Positions 3,602-27,894 of a stretch of 29,158 bases of DNA are shown here, in pieces. Numbering within the stretch: position 1 is the first letter of the stretch; every line of letters begins with the position of its first letter. The notes beneath the pieces are model-generated. The model was given only the letters and a program-made list of their open reading frames with translations, ran no database searches and was not told the DNA's origin. The DNA is from a virus. Location of the stretch: positions 1 to 29,158 of IMG/VR virus record IMGVR_UViG_3300034190_000533. The stretch is one strand, 5' to 3'. The position numbers and the translations under genes were made by a program.

Positions 3602-3795
3602 GCGACGGATCATGGGCTGGCGGCAAAGGATCGAAGCCGAGAAAGGTCGACCGAAATAAGTTCGATGATAATTACGACCGGATATTCGGCAAGAAAAAAC
3701 CGGGTGAAAATGTGGAAAATTGCAAAGAAGGCGAAGAGCTGGGGCTTAAATTATTGCAATCCGTAAAAGAAATGAAGGCGCAGAAAAGTGATTAA
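3598..3795 (+). CDS. Small lysine-rich hypothetical protein (65 aa)
   Basis: ATG 3598 is chosen over the longer upstream frame because GGGGAGG (3584-3590) precedes it and the ATGA overlap couples it to the 58-residue gene. The product is polar, rich in Lys, Gly and Asp, and probably disordered in its first half with a short C-terminal helix. Its stop lies 8 bp inside the following gene. Function unknown. Confidence 0.65.
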   Translation: MSDGSWAGGKGSKPRKVDRNKFDDNYDRIFGKKKPGENVENCKEGEELGLKLLQSVKEMKAQKSD

Positions 3796-4528
3796 GTATC
3801 ACGGAACGCCAATCGGCGGTAAAACAACAGACGCAGCGGAACTTCTTAGAGGTAGGCATGGGCTGGTAAGTATTGCGCATCCAGAGCAGTTAAATGTGGT
3901 TCTGGAGAACTGCCAATCTTTTGTTCTCGATAACGGGGCTTTCAGTGAGTGGAAGAAATCTGGAAGCGAGATTGACTTCGATGCTTATGCTGACTGGGTA
4001 AAGTCTCTCTATCGGCATCCGAATTTTGATTGGTGTTTAATTCCAGACAAGATCGACGGAACAGAGGAAGAGAATGTTCAGCTCGTTAATAAATGGCTCA
4101 GAATGGGCTTAAGAGCAAAAGGCGTTCCGATCTGGCATCTTCACGAGAGTTTGGAGTGGCTGGAATGGATGGTCGACCGATTCGAGTGGGTAGCAATCGG
4201 CAGTTCTGGGCAGTGGGCTACTCCGAACACAAAGGGATGGTGGGCGAGAATGGGTGAAGCAATGAGTGTTTGCTGCGACTCAGAAGGACGGCCAAGAGCT
4301 AAACTTCACGGCTTGAGAATGCTTGATCCGAGTATATTTACCAATCTGCCATTAGCATCTGCCGATAGCACTAATGCTGCCAGAAATAATAACCAGCTAA
4401 GTCGATTCGGTATGTACGCGCCGCCATCTGCCGGGCAGAGAGCGTCAAATATAGCGGCCAGAATTGAATCGTTTAACTCTGCTCCGGTCTGGCTGGGTAA
4501 AAAACAGCAATCTCTGGATCTCTTCTAA
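3788..4528 (+). CDS. Putative TGT-like/DpdA-like deazaguanine transglycosylase
   Basis: A 246-residue protein starting with GTG. It resembles a conserved phage family that I associate with tRNA-guanine transglycosylase folds, including the DpdA enzymes that put 7-deazaguanines into DNA. Motifs in barrel order are LDNGAF (47-52), DWCLIPDKIDG (81-91), WHLHES (116-121), VAIGSSGQW (135-143), LHGLRMLDP (173-181) and ASADST (190-195). Asp48 and Asp193 would be the candidate catalytic aspartates by analogy with DSGGF and the second TGT Asp. The CxCxxC-H zinc site of bacterial TGT is not visible. No queuosine-pathway genes (folE, queD, queE, queC) are in the window. GC is about 44% by hand count over 3901-4140. 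The fold is inferred by motif resemblance; base-exchange on DNA or tRNA is hypothesis. Confidence 0.5.
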   Translation: MIKYHGTPIGGKTTDAAELLRGRHGLVSIAHPEQLNVVLENCQSFVLDNGAFSEWKKSGSEIDFDAYADWVKSLYRHPNFDWCLIPDKIDGTEEENVQLVNKWLRMGLRAKGVPIWHLHESLEWLEWMVDRFEWVAIGSSGQWATPNTKGWWARMGEAMSVCCDSEGRPRAKLHGLRMLDPSIFTNLPLASADSTNAARNNNQLSRFGMYAPPSAGQRASNIAARIESFNSAPVWLGKKQQSLDLF

Positions 4529-4935
4529 TGATTAGCCCGCTGCTATGTGTCGCAATGGCGGTGTATTTTGAGGCCCGGGGAGAGCAGCAGATCGCCGGGC
4601 TGATAGCGGTCGCAGAGGTTATCGAAAATCGTGTTCAAGACTCTCGGTTCCCGGACGATCACTGCTCGGTCGTTAAGCAGGGGCGATACTGGGGCGGGCA
4701 TCCGATCAAGCACCAGTGTCAGTTCACGTTCTACTGCGACAGGAAGCCGGAGACGGTCAGAGACCATGAATCTTGGCGAACTGCTCTACTGGTAGCAAGT
4801 AAAGCGCTAAACGGTGAATTCGTCCCGGTAACACATGGGGCGACTCACTATCACGCGAAGTCGGTCAATCCGTACTGGTCTCACACCGGGGAACTGACAC
4901 AGGCCATCGGCGGGCATTTATTCTACAAACTGTAA
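4528..4935 (+). CDS. SleB-type cell wall hydrolase (endolysin candidate)
   Basis: A 135-residue protein matching the Hydrolase_2/SleB family, which cleaves peptidoglycan glycan strands. The hallmark is YFEARGE (13-19) with the presumed catalytic Glu15, followed by AEVIENRV, the Cys-containing QGRYWGGHPIKHQCQFTFYCD region, and the terminal THYHAKSVNPYW segment usual in the family. No signal peptide is evident, so access to the wall would need a holin. ATG 4528 shares one base with the preceding TAA. It lies far from the other lysis genes (21905-25717), so it may serve entry, or be one of two lysins. Confidence 0.85.
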   Translation: MISPLLCVAMAVYFEARGEQQIAGLIAVAEVIENRVQDSRFPDDHCSVVKQGRYWGGHPIKHQCQFTFYCDRKPETVRDHESWRTALLVASKALNGEFVPVTHGATHYHAKSVNPYWSHTGELTQAIGGHLFYKL

Positions 4936-4938
4936 TTG

Positions 4939-4947
4939 TGCTATACT
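4939..4947 (+). promoter_or_regulatory. Extended -10 promoter before the GIY-YIG/terminase block
   Basis: TGCTATACT (TGn plus TATACT at 4942-4947) lies just after the hydrolase stop. No good -35 is seen 17 bp upstream, as expected for an extended -10 promoter. The downstream leader shares GCAACGCT (4956-4963) with the leader of the scaffold promoter at 10661-10668. It also overlaps the alternative TTG start of the next gene, which argues against that start. Confidence 0.5.
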
Positions 4948-4979
4948 GCTATCAGGCAACGCTTGGGGCGGGGCCAGAT

Positions 4980-4996
4980 TTTGCGCGGGGTGCAAA
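4980..4996 (+). promoter_or_regulatory. Hairpin with Shine-Dalgarno in the loop, GIY-YIG gene
   Basis: TTTGCGC (4980-4986) pairs with GTGCAAA (4990-4996), with one G-T pair, around a GGG loop. The GGGG ribosome binding site is presented at the hairpin tip and the start codon begins at the stem foot. It could gate or enhance initiation. Confidence 0.5.
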
Positions 4997-5673
4997 TGAA
5001 TAGCTTTCCAGAACATCGAGTCGCCAGTATTGGTGGCTTAATTCCGTATGCGCTGAACTCTCGGCCGCATTCTGGCGCTCGTTTCGCCGCTCTTCCAGCT
5101 AACAGGGCTATATTGACTCCGCAGAAAGCGAGAGAGCTGGCTTGCCCGATTATCTACGGCTTATGCAATGGTGAGCGCGGCATCTTCTATGTCGGCAAGA
5201 CTACTAGACCAAAGCGCCGAATATATAACTATCTCAACCCGAGTCAGTGCCATAGTAAGGCTTTGGCTGAATATCTCAAAGAGAACCCGAACTTCCATGT
5301 GGTCGTTCTCGAAAAGAACCCGGAAGATATAAACGAGTCTGAGATGTTCTATATCCAGCAATATAAGGGATTGACGTTTAACATCGATCTAGTGGATTAC
5401 ACGATCTGGAGAGAACACAAGAGTGAGCCGTGGATGGCTGGGGTAGGGGTAAGATGCCCGAGTGATTATCTCATGTGGCAAGCGGCAAAAGCGGGCGGGG
5501 TTCCGATCAAAAAGGCATTTTCTCAGCATATTGAGATGCGAGAAAAAATGAGTAAAAAAGAGCGTATTTGCTTCGAAGTCGGGCTATACAAAGACTCTCA
5601 TCCCCAAGCCCAGAAAGTCATGCAGCAATGGTTCGACAGGTGTAAGCACGACCTACTCGAAGGGTTAATGTAA
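4996..5673 (+). CDS. GIY-YIG endonuclease-domain protein
   Basis: A 225-residue protein with a GIY-YIG nuclease domain: IIYGL (52-56), IFYVGKT (63-69), the arginine of RPKRRIYNYL (71-80) and a later glutamate in NESEMFYIQQY (113-123), the expected order of catalytic elements. The frame extends upstream to TTG 4936, but that lies inside the promoter, and ATG 4996 has a GGGG site 5 bp upstream. The C-terminal 90 residues are a separate basic region that could bind DNA. Position directly before the terminase genes suggests either a homing endonuclease or a nuclease that helps packaging, as seen for HNH proteins in other phages. Which one is not decided by the sequence. Confidence 0.85.
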   Translation: MNSFPEHRVASIGGLIPYALNSRPHSGARFAALPANRAILTPQKARELACPIIYGLCNGERGIFYVGKTTRPKRRIYNYLNPSQCHSKALAEYLKENPNFHVVVLEKNPEDINESEMFYIQQYKGLTFNIDLVDYTIWREHKSEPWMAGVGVRCPSDYLMWQAAKAGGVPIKKAFSQHIEMREKMSKKERICFEVGLYKDSHPQAQKVMQQWFDRCKHDLLEGLM

Positions 5674-6014
5674 TGGGCAGAAAGGCTTTAGAATTTAATG
5701 ATTTACAAAAAGCGCAGGTGGAAGCGCTGGCCGCTTATTTAACGCTGGAGCAGATCGCGGATTATTTCGGTATATGCAGGAAAACGCTACAGAATATGCG
5801 ACACCGAGATGCCGAGATTGATACCCTTTATAGGAGAGGGAGAGCAAAGTCTATCGCGGGGATGGCTGGATCTCTCATCGAGCAGGGAATGAGCGGCAAC
5901 GTAACAGCGCAGAAGTTTTATCTATCGACGCAAGCAGGATGGCGCGAGACCGAGCCAGATCAGGGAAATCACAACATCACACTCCAGATAGTGAAGCCAG
6001 ATGGCGCAAATTAG
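5673..6014 (+). CDS. terS: Terminase small subunit
   Basis: A 113-residue DNA-recognition subunit of the packaging motor. The N-terminal part holds a helix-turn-helix (about 24-47, LTLEQIADYFGICRKTLQNMRHRD), followed by the helical GRAKSIAGMAGSLIEQGMSGNVTAQKFYLSTQAGWRET segment that is typical of phage small terminases. Its ATG overlaps the preceding TAA by one base and its end overlaps the large subunit by 14 bp, so the three genes are coupled. Confidence 0.88.
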   Translation: MGRKALEFNDLQKAQVEALAAYLTLEQIADYFGICRKTLQNMRHRDAEIDTLYRRGRAKSIAGMAGSLIEQGMSGNVTAQKFYLSTQAGWRETEPDQGNHNITLQIVKPDGAN

Positions 6015-7239
6015 GCCGACGCTGCCGCAATACAACTACATGGTCTCAGAGGCTCGGTTTCCGGCGCTCGTCGCTGGATTCGGCGCTGGCAAGACTGAGG
6101 CGGCTATTCTGCGTTCTATCTTCGGACTGATCTCGAACCCGGGCACGAATCGCGGCTTTTACGAGCCGACTTACGATCTGATCCGGGTAATCGCGTGGCC
6201 CAGATTCGAAGAGATACTCACGGCGATGGGACTTCCGTATCGGCTGCAAAAGACTCCAATCAACCAGATCACGATCTCTGGCTACGGCTCGATCATATTC
6301 CGCTCGATGGAGAACCCGAACCGAATAGTGGGTTACGAGCACGCGGACGCAGACATCGACGAGCTGGATACGCTCTCGAAGACCAACGCATCACACGTCT
6401 GGCGACAAGTAATCGCCCGTAACAGGCAGCACAAGCCGTCCGGGAAGCCGAACACCATCGGAGTTACTACAACGCCGGAGGGTTTCCGATTCGTCTATGA
6501 GGCGTGGAAGAAAGACCCACAGCCGGGTTACGAGATCATTCAAGCGCCGACGCATTCGAATCCGCATCTACCGGACGGATATATTCAGTCGTTGCGGGAT
6601 ATTTACCCGGATCAGTTGCTCACGGCGTATCTCGAAGGCCAGTTCGTCAATCTGACTCAGGGCACGGTCTACTGCGGGTACTCTCGGCACGACTGCAACT
6701 CATCCGAAGAGATCCAATCTGGCGAGCCGTTATATATCGGCTGCGACTTTAACGTCACTCAGCAATGCGCCGTGGTCTATGTACGCCGGGGCGACGAGTG
6801 GCACGCGGTCGACGAACTGATTGATATGTACGATACGCCGGACATGGTTCGCATCATCTCAGAGCGTTACGCCGACCATCACGTTACGATTTACCCGGAT
6901 GCTTCGGGCAGGGCCAGAAAGACCGTAAACGCCAGCACGTCGGACATCGCGCTGCTGGAGCAAGCAGGATTCTCGGTAAGAGCGAAGAAAACGAACCCGG
7001 CAATCAAAGACCGGGTAATGGCTACCAACGCAGCGTTCGAAAATGGTTTGCTATACATAAATGCGCTAAAATGTACAGGCGTGGCAGAATCGTTCGAGCA
7101 GCTCGCATACGATAAGAACGGAATGCCAGACAAGAATTCAGGTTTAGATCATGCCATCGATGCGGCGACGTATCCGATTGCATACGAAATGCCAATCGTG
7201 AAGCCAGTGGCTCACATACCGATAAATTTCAGCGTATAG
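6001..7239 (+). CDS. terL: Terminase large subunit (packaging ATPase/nuclease)
   Basis: A 412-residue motor protein that translocates and cuts the genome at the portal. The N-terminal ATPase has Walker A GFGAGKT (26-32) and a Walker B with catalytic Glu in ADADIDELD. The C-terminal RNase H-like nuclease has three acidic motifs: GCDFN, YPDASG and GLDHAIDA. ATG 6001 lies 14 bp before the small-subunit stop. The short linker and 412-residue length fit compact siphovirus terminases. No inteins or breaks are seen. Confidence 0.97.
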   Translation: MAQIRPTLPQYNYMVSEARFPALVAGFGAGKTEAAILRSIFGLISNPGTNRGFYEPTYDLIRVIAWPRFEEILTAMGLPYRLQKTPINQITISGYGSIIFRSMENPNRIVGYEHADADIDELDTLSKTNASHVWRQVIARNRQHKPSGKPNTIGVTTTPEGFRFVYEAWKKDPQPGYEIIQAPTHSNPHLPDGYIQSLRDIYPDQLLTAYLEGQFVNLTQGTVYCGYSRHDCNSSEEIQSGEPLYIGCDFNVTQQCAVVYVRRGDEWHAVDELIDMYDTPDMVRIISERYADHHVTIYPDASGRARKTVNASTSDIALLEQAGFSVRAKKTNPAIKDRVMATNAAFENGLLYINALKCTGVAESFEQLAYDKNGMPDKNSGLDHAIDAATYPIAYEMPIVKPVAHIPINFSV

Positions 7240-7246
7240 GTGAATT

Positions 7247-8617
7247 ATGCCAGTTTCAGAAACCCATGCTGAGTATGACAAGAATATCGACAAGTGGAAG
7301 CTGACTCGCAATGCTTCGACCGGGTTGAGTTTCGAGAATGCTCGGCACTACATAATGCGACGCACGCACGAAGAGCAGGATCAGTATTACCATCGCGTCG
7401 AGAAAGCGATATATACGAACTACACCGGACGAACCCGGGAAGGGCTGAAGGGCGCGATATTCCGTCTGCCGCCGCGCATCGAGCTGCCGCCAGATATGGA
7501 ATTCATGCTGGAGAACGCCGACGGAGCCGGGCAATCGCTGACGCAAGTATCGAAGCTCGCAGCGGATGAGGTTATGGAGACCGGGCGATTCGGTCTGCTG
7601 GCCGATTATCCGATGGTCGACGAAGATCTCACGGTCGAGCAAGTTCGCAGGATGGGGCTACAGCCGCACATTGCGACTTATACTGCCGAGTCTATTATCA
7701 ACTGGCACGTTCACGTTCTAAACGGACGCCGCCAGCTCGGAATGCTAGTGCTGAAAGAGAACTCGCCAGTTCATTATGACGAATTCACTTGGGACTATGT
7801 GGATCGCTTCCGGGTTCTCAGGCTCAACGATAGCCAGCAGTATACGCAGCAGCTCTACGACGAGAACGGCGACGCAATCACCGAAGAGATCGTGATTCGT
7901 GGCGCGAGCGGTCAGCCGTTCGATTATATCCCGTTCCATTTCATCGGAAGCCGGGACAATCTGCCGGACATCGACGAGCCGATTCTGTACGACATCGCCC
8001 GGGTGAATATCGGGCACTTCCGCAACTCAGCGGATCAGGAGAACAATCTCTCGGTTCACGGCGGCGGTACTCTGGTCGTATCTACTGATATGAGTCCGGA
8101 GGCATTCCAAGCAGCGAACCCGGGCGGCATTACAGTCGGCGAGAACGCTGGTCTGGTACTCTCTGAGGGCGGCAAAGCAGAACTGCTACAACTGGGGCCA
8201 GCTAGTGCGATCGGCACTGAGATGACCCACAAAGAGCAGATGATGGTTCAGATCGGCGCTAAGATCATTACGAAGACCGGGCAGCGGACAGCCGAAGAGG
8301 CTCGCATCCAAGCGACTTCCGAGAACTCGATGCTCGATACTATGGTCGGCAATATAAACGAAGCATTTACGGCGGTGATCTACGACTGCCGAGCGTTCAT
8401 CTCGCCAACAGATGCCGAGATCGTATTCTCTCTGAACAACGACTTCTATGCTGACAGCATCGCGCCGCAAGAGATTATGGCTATGATTCAGGGTAGCGAC
8501 GCGGGCGTAATGCCGAAGATCGACATCGTGCGCCGTCTCATCGATGCCGGGTGGATACAATCCGAAGGCACGCCGGAAGACATTCTCTCGGATATCACTC
8601 AGGAGTCGCCGCTCTAA
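7247..8617 (+). CDS. Portal protein, DUF4055 type
   Basis: A 456-residue protein placed between terminase and the MuF head protein, the usual portal position. The pattern of the N-terminal third (RHYIMRRTHEEQDQYYHRVEKAIYTNYTGRTREGLKGAIFRLPP) is that of the DUF4055 portal family. The long mixed middle and helical C-terminus with acidic tail also fit. It forms the dodecameric channel through which DNA enters and to which the connectors attach. Its stop abuts the next ATG with no spacer. Confidence 0.88.
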   Translation: MPVSETHAEYDKNIDKWKLTRNASTGLSFENARHYIMRRTHEEQDQYYHRVEKAIYTNYTGRTREGLKGAIFRLPPRIELPPDMEFMLENADGAGQSLTQVSKLAADEVMETGRFGLLADYPMVDEDLTVEQVRRMGLQPHIATYTAESIINWHVHVLNGRRQLGMLVLKENSPVHYDEFTWDYVDRFRVLRLNDSQQYTQQLYDENGDAITEEIVIRGASGQPFDYIPFHFIGSRDNLPDIDEPILYDIARVNIGHFRNSADQENNLSVHGGGTLVVSTDMSPEAFQAANPGGITVGENAGLVLSEGGKAELLQLGPASAIGTEMTHKEQMMVQIGAKIITKTGQRTAEEARIQATSENSMLDTMVGNINEAFTAVIYDCRAFISPTDAEIVFSLNNDFYADSIAPQEIMAMIQGSDAGVMPKIDIVRRLIDAGWIQSEGTPEDILSDITQESPL

Positions 8618-10462
8618 ATGAGTGCTAACGACTATCTGCTGGATGCTGGAATAAAGCACCAGATATACGTCCAGCGCTACGCGGGCGGGCAGGTGAAGGA
8701 TCTGGTCAAGTATCTCGACGATGCTCAGGCTGAGATTCTTCGCAAGCTCGACGGCGTGGATACTCTGGCAGAAAGTCGGTCACTGCAACGCAAGCTAGAC
8801 CAGATAACAGCGCTACAAAGCGACGCTCTGGAAAAACTGAGCAAAGGGATAACCGATAACGCCGCAGATTTCGCGGAGTATGAGGCAGAGTTCGCCGTAA
8901 AGACGATGAACACGGCCGCAGCGGCATCGGTCACGCTCCCGGCGTCTGAGCAGCTCCGGGCGCTGGTAACACAGGCTCCGATGCAACTGGCGATCAGCGG
9001 CAAAGCAGGAAGCACGGTTCAGTCGCTAACACTGGGCCAAGCGGCTACGCAGTTCTCGAAAGACAAAGCAGCAGAGATCACTCGAACGATTCAACGCGGG
9101 ATGGTCGAAGGCTCAACGGTGCAGTCTCTTACCCGGCAGATCGCAAGTGTTACGAATAAACACAAACGACAAGCCGAAGCACTGGTTCGAACTAGCGTCA
9201 ATCACATCTCGTCAGAAGCTCGCTCGGCAGTACATAAGGCGAATGACGATATTCTGAAGGGCGAAGAGTACGTCTCAGTTCTCGATGGTCGCACGACGAT
9301 AGGCTGCGCAGCGCTAGATGGCAAGATACTCGGGTTCGACGAGCCGCCATTCACTCCACGCCATTGGAACTGCCGATCTTTTCGCGTCCCGGTGCTAAAG
9401 GATGAGTATCAAGAAGGAGGACTCGAAGGAACCCGGGCCAGCGTTCAGGGGCCAGTATCAGCGAAGCGAACCTACAGCGGATGGCTCAAAGATCAGTCGC
9501 CAGAGTTTCAAAACGGAGTTCTGGGGCTGGAGCGGGCAAAGATGTTCAGGGCCGGAAAGCTAAGTCTGGATGATTTTGTGGATTCTAACGGCAATCCGAT
9601 CTCTCTGAAGCAGCTCCAAGTGCTAGACGGTGCGACAAATGTGCGCAAGACGCCGAAGGTAGTTCCGAAGCCGACTCCGGGCACTGGCAAGATACCGGGG
9701 CAAGCGAAGAAGTTCGTCCCGGCGAAGACTATCGCAGAGGCCAAGCAATACGCAGAAGAGACCGGGCTGGCGACACTGGCTGACTATGGCAAATTGGACA
9801 TCGAAGCGGCGAATATGATTAACAAATCAGTGCAAGACACGATCGAAAGATTCCCGGCGATGAGGGGGCGAATGTCATTTATCGGTTCTATGCAAAAGAA
9901 CGTCGAGATGCAGTATCAAGCGAAGCTGAAGGCTAATACCGACTACATCAACAAGAAATATCCAGAAAAAAAATACACGGCAGACAAAATTCTCTGGCTA
10001 AAGAAAGAAGTAAGAAGAGAGCCGATCCGTAAACAGACTTACGCTTTTGCTAGACCAAAATCACAAGACAAGTACTTCGCACACGTCGACGGGGTTGTTT
10101 TGAATGAGAAATTTGGAAGCACAGCCAAAATTGAGACTCTAAAGCAAGATCTAAAAAGTGACGCTCAGGCGCAGTGGCATCCAGTTGGAACTGAGAATCT
10201 GCAATCAATCATGGATCACGAGATGGGTCACCAGATAGATTATCTTCTTGATATGCGGAAATCCGTAGCAATTCGAGAACTGTATAACTCAAATCTCAAC
10301 AACATGAAGCAAGATCTAAGCGCTTACGGCAAAAAGAATATCGCTGAGTTCATCGCGGAGAGCTGGTCTGAATACGTCAATAATCCAACGCCAAGACCAT
10401 TGGCGAAACAAGTGGGGGATCTAATCAATGTCGAATACGCAAAGAAGTTCGGGGATAAGTAG
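8618..10462 (+). CDS. MuF-type head protein fused to a C-terminal HExxH metallopeptidase domain
   Basis: A 614-residue fusion. The N-terminal half is a Mu gpF/SPP1 gp7-like minor head protein; its hallmark is the cysteine-bearing segment from CAALDGK to PPFTPRHWNCRSFRVPV. A Pro-rich linker (KVVPKPTPGTGKIPG) follows. The C-terminal part (about 400-614) is a zincin-like domain with DHEMGHQIDYLL, HEMGH at 534-538 giving two zinc ligands and the catalytic Glu535, and a downstream EFIAESWSEY (577-586) that could supply the third ligand. By hand count GC is 42% over 9961-10380 against 58% over 8641-9060, so the C-terminal domain appears exchanged. MuF proteins are carried in the head and may be injected; related C-terminal domains are known as phage polymorphic toxins. 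A maturation protease is the alternative. Confidence 0.85.
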   Translation: MSANDYLLDAGIKHQIYVQRYAGGQVKDLVKYLDDAQAEILRKLDGVDTLAESRSLQRKLDQITALQSDALEKLSKGITDNAADFAEYEAEFAVKTMNTAAAASVTLPASEQLRALVTQAPMQLAISGKAGSTVQSLTLGQAATQFSKDKAAEITRTIQRGMVEGSTVQSLTRQIASVTNKHKRQAEALVRTSVNHISSEARSAVHKANDDILKGEEYVSVLDGRTTIGCAALDGKILGFDEPPFTPRHWNCRSFRVPVLKDEYQEGGLEGTRASVQGPVSAKRTYSGWLKDQSPEFQNGVLGLERAKMFRAGKLSLDDFVDSNGNPISLKQLQVLDGATNVRKTPKVVPKPTPGTGKIPGQAKKFVPAKTIAEAKQYAEETGLATLADYGKLDIEAANMINKSVQDTIERFPAMRGRMSFIGSMQKNVEMQYQAKLKANTDYINKKYPEKKYTADKILWLKKEVRREPIRKQTYAFARPKSQDKYFAHVDGVVLNEKFGSTAKIETLKQDLKSDAQAQWHPVGTENLQSIMDHEMGHQIDYLLDMRKSVAIRELYNSNLNNMKQDLSAYGKKNIAEFIAESWSEYVNNPTPRPLAKQVGDLINVEYAKKFGDK

Positions 10463-10601
10463 CGAGATCCCGATAGAAGGGCCACAAATCAATGACGTTT
10501 ACTATGGAATAAAAGACGCCATCGAAGTCGCCAAAGAGTTTCCGGAGCTAGAAAAGGGCGTTCTGGCGATACTAAAAGAAGACTACGACATTACAGAATA
10601 G
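10428..10601 (+). CDS. Small acidic ORF overlapping the metallopeptidase end
   Basis: A 57-residue frame in a different phase, starting at ATG 10428 with a GGGGG site at 10414-10418, overlapping the MuF-zincin gene by 35 bp. The C-terminal half is helical and acidic (YYGIKDAIEVAKEFPELEKG, then LAILKEDYDITE). It ends before the scaffold promoter. Size, acidity, overlap and position suit an immunity protein or inhibitor of the upstream metallopeptidase, but no homologous family is recognised. It could instead be a small head protein. Confidence 0.6.
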   Translation: MSNTQRSSGISSEIPIEGPQINDVYYGIKDAIEVAKEFPELEKGVLAILKEDYDITE

Positions 10602-10665: not shown

Positions 10666-10698
10666 GCTGCGGGGCAGCATAAAAATGTACGGGGTACA
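10666..10698 (+). promoter_or_regulatory. Leader with two GGG-loop hairpins, Shine-Dalgarno in the second
   Basis: GCTGC/GCAGC (10666-10678) and TGTAC/GTACA (10686-10698) each close a GGG loop. The second carries the GGGG ribosome binding site of the scaffold gene, 6 bp before ATG 10701. The first could stabilise the 5' end of the mRNA. Confidence 0.5.
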
Positions 10699-10700
10699 GC

Positions 10701-11372
10701 ATGGGCTTACAATACGCAGTCGACGATCTCACCGATCTCGACGAATCAGTTCAATCTCTTTACGAACAGGACGGTGATCGATATATCTTGAGAGTCGAAG
10801 GGTTCCCCCAGCCGGAGGATACCAGCGGACTCAAAAGCAAAGTCCAGCAGCTAATGGACGAAGCGAAAGATGCGAAGCGACGTGCGAAAGAATTAGAGTC
10901 GCAGAAACAGCAGCAAGAGATGGAGACCGCTCAGGAAAAGGGCGAGTTCAAGAATCTCTGGGAACAGGCTCAGGCGAAGCTCGCCGAGAAAGACGCAGAG
11001 CTGCAAGAGTTCACGACAAAGATCCAACAGAAAGACATAAATATCGCTGCACGCGGTATCGGCTCGCAACTTGCGAAGTCAGACGCCAAACGGGCGGAGG
11101 TATTGGCCGACTATGCTTCACGGTATGCTCGGCACGACGGCGAGAAGGTTCAGTTTTTAGTGGGCGGGATGGAAGTAGACTCATCCGCACTAATGGATCA
11201 TCTGGCGAAAGAATTTCCGTTTTTGGTTGACGGCTCATCGGCTACCGGGGGTGGCGCGACGAGTTCTGCAAGTAGCGGGGCTACGAAATCACTTAATCGA
11301 GCCGACTTTGACAAATTGGCGGCATCCAAAAAGATGCAGTTCGTGAAAGACGGCGGCATCATCTCTGACTAA
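10701..11372 (+). CDS. Capsid scaffolding protein
   Basis: A 223-residue protein just before the coat gene. The N-terminal part (LYEQDGDRYILRVEGF) is typical of scaffold proteins, followed by a long charged coiled coil (about 45-110, rich in Lys, Glu and Gln), a helical C-terminal part and a Gly/Ser-rich stretch before a final basic helix (ADFDKLAASKKMQFVKDGG) that likely contacts coat protein. Scaffolds fill the procapsid and leave or are cleaved before packaging. ATG 10701 follows the GGGG site in the leader hairpin. Confidence 0.85.
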   Translation: MGLQYAVDDLTDLDESVQSLYEQDGDRYILRVEGFPQPEDTSGLKSKVQQLMDEAKDAKRRAKELESQKQQQEMETAQEKGEFKNLWEQAQAKLAEKDAELQEFTTKIQQKDINIAARGIGSQLAKSDAKRAEVLADYASRYARHDGEKVQFLVGGMEVDSSALMDHLAKEFPFLVDGSSATGGGATSSASSGATKSLNRADFDKLAASKKMQFVKDGGIISD

Positions 11373-11387
11373 TAAGGTATTTAAATC

Positions 11388-12518
11388 ATGGCTAACACTT
11401 TAACCAATCTCACTCCAGATCTATACGAAGCGCTTGATACCGTTTCGCGTGAACTGGTCGGTATGATCCCAGCGGTAACACTCGATGCGAATGCAGAGCG
11501 TGCGGCCAAAGGTCAAACAATCCGTAGCGCAGTTGCTCCAAGCTCCGCTGCTGCTGACATTACTCCAGCGCAGAAAGCTCCAGACACTGGCGACCAGATA
11601 ATCACTAACAAGACTCTGAGCATCTCAAAGTCTCGTGGTGTGGCAATCCGCTACAACGGCGAAGAGCAGCGCGGTCTGAACACTGGCCCGGGCTACAACA
11701 GCATCCTCCAGAACCAATTCGCTCAGGCGATGCGCACTCTGACAAACGAAGTTGAGGCTGATCTCACTGCGCTTTACGCTCAGGCGTCTAACGCATACGG
11801 AACTCCCGGCACTACTCCATTCGGTACTTCTGGCGATTTCAGCGACGCTTCATTCGCTCTCAAGCTGCTAAAAGACAACGGTGCGCCGTTGACTGGTAAC
11901 CAGCTCGTTGTAAGCTCTGCCGCTGGCGCTTCAATGCTCGGTCTGCAAAGCCGCATCGACGTTCAGGGCAACGACTCTATGCTACGTCAGGGCGTAATGC
12001 TCTCGACTGCTGGCATGGATATCCGCGAGTCTGCGCAAATCAATGCTCACACTAAAGGCACTGGCGCGAACTACGTCACAGACGGCGCTGCATCTGAGGG
12101 CGATACTGTTATCTCTCTCAAGACTGGTACTGGCACTATCTTGGCGGGTGATACAATCACTTTCGCTGGTGACGCGAACAAGTACGTCGTAACAGCCGCT
12201 CTCGCTGCTGGCGACGTGACTATCGCAGCTCCCGGTCTCAAAGGCGCAATCGCTGGCGACGTAGCGGTAACAGTCGGCAACGGCTACGCTGCGAACATGG
12301 CGTTCAACCGCGACGCGATCGTTCTCGTAACACGCGCTCCGGCTCGTCCAGTTGAAGGCGATCTCGCTGAAGACGTAATGTTTATGACTGATCCGCGTTC
12401 AGGCATCACGTTCGAAGTGTCTATGTACAAAGAGTACCGTCAGGTTCACTTCGAAGTAGCACTCGCTTGGGGCGTCTCAGCCATCAAGCCAGAGCATATG
12501 GGTATTCTGCTCGGCTAA
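11388..12518 (+). CDS. Major capsid protein, P22 coat-like
   Basis: A 376-residue HK97-fold coat protein of the P22 gp5-like type. The N-terminus (MANTLTNLTPDLYEALDTVS) and the early GQTIRSAVAP pattern match that family, and a beta-rich Thr/Gly/Ala segment at about 222-305 resembles an inserted surface domain. The codons are biased to CGT, GGT, AAC and GCT compared with the rest of the window, as expected for the most abundant protein. It lies behind scaffold, with a strong hairpin after the stop. No protease is seen nearby apart from the zincin domain of the MuF protein. Confidence 0.93.
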   Translation: MANTLTNLTPDLYEALDTVSRELVGMIPAVTLDANAERAAKGQTIRSAVAPSSAAADITPAQKAPDTGDQIITNKTLSISKSRGVAIRYNGEEQRGLNTGPGYNSILQNQFAQAMRTLTNEVEADLTALYAQASNAYGTPGTTPFGTSGDFSDASFALKLLKDNGAPLTGNQLVVSSAAGASMLGLQSRIDVQGNDSMLRQGVMLSTAGMDIRESAQINAHTKGTGANYVTDGAASEGDTVISLKTGTGTILAGDTITFAGDANKYVVTAALAAGDVTIAAPGLKGAIAGDVAVTVGNGYAANMAFNRDAIVLVTRAPARPVEGDLAEDVMFMTDPRSGITFEVSMYKEYRQVHFEVALAWGVSAIKPEHMGILLG

Positions 12519-14000: not shown

Positions 14001-14467
14001 GTTGGGAATCTGACTGGAAAAAGATCGAACAAAAGATCGATCATGTGCTCAATAAAGGCATTCGAGCGACTCTTTTCGAAGTAAGTACGGCGATTATCAA
14101 AGAGACTCCCGCAGATACCGGGCGCGCTCGTGGTAATTGGCAAGCATCCGTCGGTAGCGGGGCTACTGGCACAATAGAAGGCATACAAAGCGAATCTCAC
14201 GGACAGGCGATAGCAATCAGAGACGTCAACCAAACGGTGAGCGTCGCGGTCGGTGAAGTTTACTATTTAACAAATAATCTTCCTTATATCGGAGTTTTAG
14301 AATACGGAACGTATCCGACTACTTTCAAGTACAATAGAAAGCAGAAGGGCGGGCCAAAGATTACCAGAGATGGTTTTTCTATTCAGGCTCCATACGGTAT
14401 GGTTCGGAAGAATATGCAGAATTTTAACCGCTTGTTCGTGAAGAATCTCAAAGCAGCAAGCAAATAA
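13997..14467 (+). CDS. HK97 gp10-like neck/tail component
   Basis: A 156-residue protein starting with TTG 13997, supported by GGAGGG at 13984-13989 and a TTGA overlap with the previous stop; another in-frame TTG at 13982 lies on the ribosome binding site. The pattern TPADTGRARGNW ... PYIGVLEYGTYP ... QAPYGMVR is that of the HK97 gp10-like family, found between connector and tube genes. Codon use becomes more AT-rich toward the 3' end. Confidence 0.8.
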   Translation: MSWESDWKKIEQKIDHVLNKGIRATLFEVSTAIIKETPADTGRARGNWQASVGSGATGTIEGIQSESHGQAIAIRDVNQTVSVAVGEVYYLTNNLPYIGVLEYGTYPTTFKYNRKQKGGPKITRDGFSIQAPYGMVRKNMQNFNRLFVKNLKAASK

Positions 14468-27601: not shown

Positions 27602-27639
27602 AAAAAAGCCCGGTGCAGAAGCTAATAACTGCACCGGGC
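27602..27639 (-). terminator. Near-perfect intrinsic terminator on the minus strand
   Basis: GCCCGGTGCAG (27608-27618) and CTGCACCGGGC (27629-27639) make an 11-bp perfect stem with a 10-nt loop. On the minus strand the hairpin is followed by TTTTTT (27607-27602), a textbook terminator. On the + strand only AATACTCTT follows. No minus-strand gene is visible to the right, so it may stop antisense transcription. Confidence 0.6.
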
Positions 27640-27647
27640 AATACTCT

Positions 27648-27663
27648 TACTTCGGGGAAAGTA
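27648..27663 (+). promoter_or_regulatory. Hairpin with Shine-Dalgarno in the loop, Cro-like gene
   Basis: TACTT (27648-27652) pairs with AAGTA (27659-27663) around CGGGGA. The GGGGA ribosome binding site of the HTH gene lies in the loop, 8 bp before ATG 27667. Confidence 0.5.
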
Positions 27664-27666
27664 CAA

Positions 27667-27894
27667 ATGAGCCAGAACACTATGTCACAAAAGGTCGATT
27701 TCGGCAAAGCGATCCGGGCAGCGCAAGCCAGCTCGCACACGCGAATCTCTGACATTGCAAAAGAGATCGGAGTCGCTCCGCAGCAAGTCTCTCGCTGGCA
27801 GAAAAGCGAAGACATAAAATTGTCCCGGGCCGTCGAAATTGCCGCAGTCTTTAAGATGAGTCTCGCCGACTTCTTGGATCTGTACCATGAATGA
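27667..27894 (+). CDS. Cro/CI-type HTH regulator
   Basis: A 75-residue DNA-binding protein with a helix-turn-helix near 30-50 (SDIAKEIGVAPQQVSRWQKS), the XRE/Cro pattern. ATG 27667 has a GGGGA site; the upstream part of the frame overlaps the minus-strand terminator and is ignored. It lacks a dimerisation or protease domain, so it is more like Cro than a prophage CI. It may regulate the 25770 or other early promoters. The start of the next gene lies inside its 3' end. Confidence 0.85.
   Translation: MSQNTMSQKVDFGKAIRAAQASSHTRISDIAKEIGVAPQQVSRWQKSEDIKLSRAVEIAAVFKMSLADFLDLYHE

What the first reader, a model, noticed from the sequence alone, without database searches (positions are those of the whole stretch)
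9650..10601. MuF-zincin fusion with overlapping small acidic ORF: candidate injected toxin and immunity pair
The head protein carries an HExxH domain (HEMGH, residues 534-538, with EFIAESWSEY behind it) after a Pro-rich linker. GC drops from 58% (8641-9060) to 42% (9961-10380, hand count), as in exchanged C-terminal toxin domains. Directly overlapping is a 57-residue acidic ORF with its own GGGGG site. MuF polymorphic toxins of temperate phages are established; a metallopeptidase version with a coupled inhibitor here is inference. A maturation protease for the coat is the alternative.
Basis: partly seen in the sequence, partly recalled or inferred. Interest (0 to 1): 0.8.

Follow-up and report, generated by a model that had tools for sequence, protein, structure and literature searches.

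The report
Phage head protein with exchangeable protease
A bacterial virus carries, on the end of a head protein, an optional zinc-protease domain that comes, goes and is swapped between related viruses, always together with one small overlapping gene; this fits a protein injected into the host and its matching inhibitor, a kind of system already predicted but, as far as found here, not yet tested for proteases.

Summary
The MuF head gene (8618-10462) ends in a ~250-residue zincin (HEMGH 534-538; Y570; E577) and overlaps by 35 nt a real 57-codon gene (10428-10601). AlphaFold2 models the domain confidently (pLDDT 93.5); its nearest, though weak, PDB matches are M34-type zincins. Close relatives fall into two classes: MuF stops near residue 340 and no small gene follows, or MuF carries the zincin and the small gene overlaps it. 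In all 15 viral contigs that hold the small gene it overlaps a zincin-muf gene. The two insert as one cassette (9628-10595). Zincin alleles cross between backbones: L004/L019 share 85% of the zincin but 78% of MuF; window/L004 and L017/L019 share 98% of MuF but 47-53% of the zincin. Coat maturation fails as an essential role: a phage without the domain has an identical scaffold protein. Best reading: an accessory protease delivered with the DNA and held in check by the small acidic protein. Delivery, toxicity and inhibition are inferred. MuF-metallopeptidases followed by small ORFs were predicted in 2017, so this is a new member of a known kind, with an unlisted partner family and unusually clean evidence of module exchange.

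The parts
8618..10462 (+). muf gene, 614 aa: MuF head protein with C-terminal zincin
   Evidence: PF04233 E 3e-15 at 153-253, TIGR01641, phrog_241 E 9e-105; portal gene directly upstream (7247-8617)
9628..10595 (+). exchangeable cassette: linker, zincin domain and small gene; absent as a unit from short-MuF relatives
   Evidence: blastn against L013 stops at 9627 and resumes at 10596
9698..10459 (+). zincin domain (about residues 361-614)
   Evidence: AF2 model pLDDT 93.5, pTM 0.90, low confidence only before this point; phrog_324 at 395-611, E 7e-33
10217..10231 (+). HEMGH zinc-binding/catalytic motif, residues 534-538
   Evidence: DHExGH invariant in 27 aligned domains; position
10325..10360 (+). 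Y570, E577, E581: invariant S-x-Y-x6-E-x3-E; presumed active-site Tyr and third zinc ligand (E577)
   Evidence: invariant in alignment A3; same spacing as in the M34-type match
10414..10418 (+). GGGGG ribosome-binding site inside muf
   Evidence: G-rich or AGGAG-like site kept in all alleles
10428..10601 (+). 57-aa acidic partner gene, candidate inhibitor/immunity protein
   Evidence: orthologues only with the zincin; dN/dS 0.2-0.4

Best explanation
The module is an accessory effector. MuF, a head protein found near the portal, carries a zinc protease that leaves the virion with the DNA and cleaves a host protein early in infection. Because the protease is also made in the producing cell, it is translated together with a small acidic protein from an overlapping start; that protein binds the mostly basic protease and keeps it inactive. 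The pair is gained, lost and exchanged as one cassette. Shown: the coupling, the exchange, the protease fold and motif, and that the domain is not needed to build this kind of head. Inferred: delivery, target, inhibition.
For: Zincin: AF2 pLDDT 93.5 / pTM 0.90, invariant HExGH, Tyr and Glu in 27 sequences, PF07737 hit by 7 of 27. Coupling: the small-gene profile hits only the 3' end of zincin-muf genes in 170 loci; the whole viral collection gives 15 contigs, all already found by the zincin search. Cassette borders. Exchange: NG86 distances cross over. Dispensable: L024 scaffold 100%, L013 scaffold 97% and coat 98% identical to the window's without the domain. The same domain sits on many other MuF carriers, nearly always followed by a small gene, often of another family. 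Acidic/basic pairing. Precedents: MuF toxins Apk2 and Bxa with adjacent inhibitors that bind the toxin (PMC12226406; PMC11699363).
Against: No experiment. The small-protein model is poor (pLDDT 62), so no complex could be examined. One allele pair (L007) lacks the charge contrast. No unrelated toxin was seen on the same backbone. A virulent phage would not need lasting immunity. Neighbouring genes that recombine together look coupled even if the small gene has another role, for example as a folding helper.
Confidence: 0.66

Rival explanations
1. Head maturation protease: the zincin cleaves scaffold or coat during assembly.
For: Position in the head operon between portal and scaffold; phrog_595, labelled 'head maturation protease', also matches the MuF part.
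Against: Relatives without the domain keep scaffold 87-100% and coat 87-98% identical to the window's, L024 scaffold 223/223; most MuF proteins of this family end near residue 340-350.
Confidence: 0.04
2. Self-processing: the protease cleaves MuF (its Pro-rich linker) to free itself or to remodel MuF at the portal; the small protein controls timing.
For: Pro-rich linker before the domain, its modelled end of low confidence; zincins of polyvalent phage proteins are proposed processing enzymes (PMC5512222); the nearest folds include Pro-Pro endopeptidases.
Against: Processing zincins usually serve other effector domains; here no other domain remains to be released.
Confidence: 0.1
3. Non-toxic anti-defence or host-takeover protease, also in virulent phages; the small protein is an inhibitor or chaperone needed only until packaging. 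(Differs from the best explanation in target and lifestyle only, and is partly contained in it.)
For: Flavobacterium phage lotta8-1, from a set reported as virulent, has MuF-zincin plus an overlapping 66-aa partner; no integrase found here.
Against: Contigs may be fragments; integrases do occur in contigs of the more distant carriers L063 and L074.
Confidence: 0.3
4. The small ORF is a chance ORF or a leader of the scaffold gene.
For: It lies just upstream of the scaffold gene and is short.
Against: Absent in the short-MuF relatives that have the same scaffold gene and leader; purifying selection; found in every close zincin contig readable to its end.
Confidence: 0.02

Closest known systems
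MuF polymorphic toxins of phages (Jamet et al. 2017, PMC5576092)
   Same: MuF N-terminus, optional C-terminal extension with an enzymatic domain, short forms without it, small ORF directly downstream mainly with the extended form; 20% of their 191 putative toxins carry a metallopeptidase.
   Different: They report toxin forms only in temperate phages, mostly of Firmicutes; here no sign of lysogeny was found, and the MuF backbone is nearest to phages of Gammaproteobacteria. The partner family has no significant match in Pfam, PHROGs or NCBIfam.
Apk2/IapK (PMC12226406) and Bxa/Bsi (PMC11699363)
   Same: MuF-linked effector with a small binding inhibitor encoded next to it; experimentally tested.
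   Different: The effectors are a (p)ppApp synthetase and an ADP-ribosyltransferase, not a protease.
M34/ATLF-type zincins (Pfam PF07737; Pro-Pro endopeptidases)
   Same: HExxH with Tyr and Glu at the same spacing; PF07737 matches 7 of 27 relatives, best E 1.2e-5; the top PDB folds are all of this type.
   Different: The window domain itself has no Pfam hit; fold matches are weak (E 0.1 or worse, TM 0.47 or less by query length).
Zincin-like MPTases of polyvalent phage proteins (PMC5512222)
   Same: HExxH zincins carried into the host by phages; linked by those authors to the same superfamily.
   Different: Those sit in large multidomain proteins and are mostly seen as processing enzymes.

Membership tests
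MuF polymorphic toxin | MuF domain in a head-module gene near portal and terminase | tested here: met
   PF04233 E 3e-15; terminase 6001-7239, portal 7247-8617, scaffold and P22-like coat downstream
MuF polymorphic toxin | C-terminal extension of at least 100 aa with a toxin-type enzymatic domain; short forms exist | tested here: met
   274-aa extension with a confident zincin model; short forms in most relatives
MuF polymorphic toxin | C-terminal domain varies on a common backbone | tested here: met
   absent, or zincin alleles that cross backbones; other HExxH domains on related MuF in L133 and L036. An unrelated toxin class was not seen
MuF polymorphic toxin | small partner gene found with the extended form and not with the short form | tested here: met
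MuF polymorphic toxin | domain is toxic and the partner neutralises it | not testable with these tools
   needs expression assays
MuF polymorphic toxin | temperate phage | tested here: inconclusive
   no PF00589 in the window or close relatives, all possibly fragments; weak HTH-repressor match at 27613-27894
M34/ATLF-type zincin | HExxH, active-site Tyr and Glu ligand at family spacing | tested here: met
   DHExGH and SxY-x6-E-x3-E in the window; these residues invariant in 27
M34/ATLF-type zincin | significant match to the family profile or fold | tested here: inconclusive
   7 of 27 relatives match PF07737, the window copy does not; Foldseek best E 0.1, prob 0.85; PDB profile search best E 0.024
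Head maturation protease | present in every phage with the same scaffold and coat | tested here: not met

The most novel reading that the evidence does not exclude
A MuF-delivered protease that also serves virulent phages: a swappable protease ejected with the DNA that cuts a host defence or takeover target, each allele travelling with its own small inhibitor, with several unrelated inhibitor families (the acidic helical type here, a Cys-rich type elsewhere) recruited to the same protease.
Probability: 0.28. Interest if true: 0.7.

Novelty: new member of a known kind. Interest (0 to 1): 0.47.

Why it matters
Proteases make up about a fifth of the predicted MuF toxins, and no paper found in the searched library tests one. 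Here the allele crossover, the domain-less sister phages with an identical scaffold protein and the small coupled gene give a ready set of matched pairs to test whether a phage injects a protease and what holds it back in the producing cell.

Tried and rejected
Head maturation protease: rejected as an essential role. Chance ORF: rejected. Low GC as proof of transfer: too weak, other parts of the contig are as low. Searches of cultured phages with the domain gave only the Flavobacterium lotta8 phages, and with two divergent relatives nothing. A joint model of the two proteins through a frame-shifting code was considered: no suitable four-letter word is unique in the window's frame, and the tool reports no contacts, so it was dropped. 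The small protein's structure was not resolved. The host was not identified. A survey of 391 genomes of the class of L079 (a Clostridia MAG) found 9 with a match to the domain, mostly weak. A scan with the second zincin of L061 found only itself.

Full report
What is there. The window is a viral contig, possibly a fragment, with a head module: terminase 6001-7239, portal 7247-8617, muf 8618-10462, scaffold 10701-11372, P22-like coat 11388-12518. The muf product has 614 residues. Residues 1-340 are the MuF head protein; residues from about 361 form a separate domain with HEMGH at 534-538, Tyr570, Glu577 and Glu581. The 57-codon gene at 10428-10601 starts 35 nt inside muf in another frame, behind GGGGG.

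The domain. An alignment of 27 relatives keeps D-H-E-x-G-H, S-x-Y and two glutamates invariant. AlphaFold2 gives pLDDT 93.5 and pTM 0.90. Foldseek against the PDB puts M34-type zincins (lethal factor, Pro-Pro endopeptidases) on top, but weakly (E 0.1 or worse); against predicted viral structures the best matches are minor capsid proteins and phage proteins annotated as lethal factor (best E 3e-6). Seven of 27 relatives match Pfam ATLF; the window copy does not. So it looks and probably works like an M34-type zincin; strict membership is probable but not proven.

The natural experiment. The scan with MuF residues 1-341 gave 43 loci. Among those above 70% identity, one group ends at about residue 340 (mostly 'LDAAQ', stop) with no small gene; the other carries the zincin and an overlapping 57-63 aa gene. 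A few contigs end before the question can be answered. Against the short phage L013, identity breaks at 9627 and resumes at 10596, at the very end of the small gene: domain and small gene are one insert. The scaffold of the short phage L024 is identical to the window's over 223 residues, and the coat of L013 is 98% identical. The domain is therefore not needed to build this kind of head.

Exchange. Window and L004 share 98% of MuF 1-340 (dS 0.20) but 53% of the domain (dS 1.33); L017 and L019 share 98% and 47%; L004 and L019 share only 78% of MuF (dS 2.0) but 85% of the domain (dS 0.97). The domain alleles thus cross between backbones. Farther out the domain is joined to many other MuF or portal-MuF carriers, and MuF proteins of this family carry other HExxH domains at least twice (L133/L126, with a 55-aa acidic ORF behind L133; L036 with a 90-aa ORF).

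The partner. A profile of the small protein finds it, in 170 sequences held, only at the end of zincin-muf genes. A scan of the 2.9 million viral contigs finds 15 contigs, every one also found by the zincin scan. It evolves under purifying selection, is acidic where the domain is mostly basic, and has no significant Pfam, PHROG or NCBIfam match. In more distant carriers the place is taken by other small proteins, most often a Cys-rich one (C-x2-C-x-H ... C-x-A-[FY]-P), seen next to ten zincin genes including that of the cultured Flavobacterium phage lotta8-1. A conserved protease with changing small partners is what cognate inhibitors would give; it is not proof.

Mechanism. Most likely the protease travels with MuF in the head, enters with the DNA and cuts a host protein, while the small protein keeps it silent in the producing cell. 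Delivery with MuF is proposed in the literature (PMC5576092), and adjacent inhibitors are shown for other MuF effectors (PMC12226406, PMC11699363). For this protease all three steps are inferred. Whether it poisons the host or serves takeover or anti-defence is open. Jamet et al. found MuF toxins only in temperate phages; here no integrase was found in the window or close relatives, and lotta8 was isolated in a set described as virulent (PMC7077304), which leans toward an early-infection tool in at least some carriers.

Known or new. MuF-metallopeptidases were predicted in 2017 (20% of 191 putative toxins; 89% of the toxin genes followed by a small ORF). This is a further member. New are the partner family, the clean cassette and the allele crossover.

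Noticed in passing
window 10666-10678 and 10686-10698; also 11272-11284 and 14154-14166: Short hairpins of the form NNNNC-GGG-GNNNN, two in tandem just before the scaffold start codon. In relatives the stems of the tandem pair change but stay complementary (all 10 pairs kept, 5 with changes on both sides, no shuffle of 500 as high). All four lie on the + strand, against about 0.6 expected in shuffled sequence. Possibly an RNA control element of late genes.
   Followed up: partly
L061 280-5611: Besides MuF-zincin and a Cys-rich partner there is a second, stand-alone zincin gene (4289-5131). Four products of this head operon share a tag like MSRKxNSGKK at or near the N-terminus, perhaps a packaging tag.
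   Followed up: partly
L062 about 3997-3999 and the same place in L063: An in-frame TAA separates MuF from the zincin domain at the same place in both contigs; read-through, a separate start or decay is unresolved.
   Followed up: no
L079 7956-8744 and L162 1426-2217: Stand-alone cellular zincins of the same family in Clostridia-class genomes, outside any MuF gene; in L079 next to a 1108-aa ORF and genes that look by eye like a kinase/vWA/phosphatase cluster.
   Followed up: no
L133 3501-5282: A related MuF with a different HExxH domain (HEYGHH) and a 55-aa acidic ORF overlapping its stop; close copies of the domain in three further contigs.
   Followed up: partly
window 3788-4528 and 4936-5673: Queuine tRNA-ribosyltransferase-like gene (phrog_887, E 3e-64), and a homing-endonuclease-like gene between an endolysin-like gene and the small terminase.
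   Followed up: no
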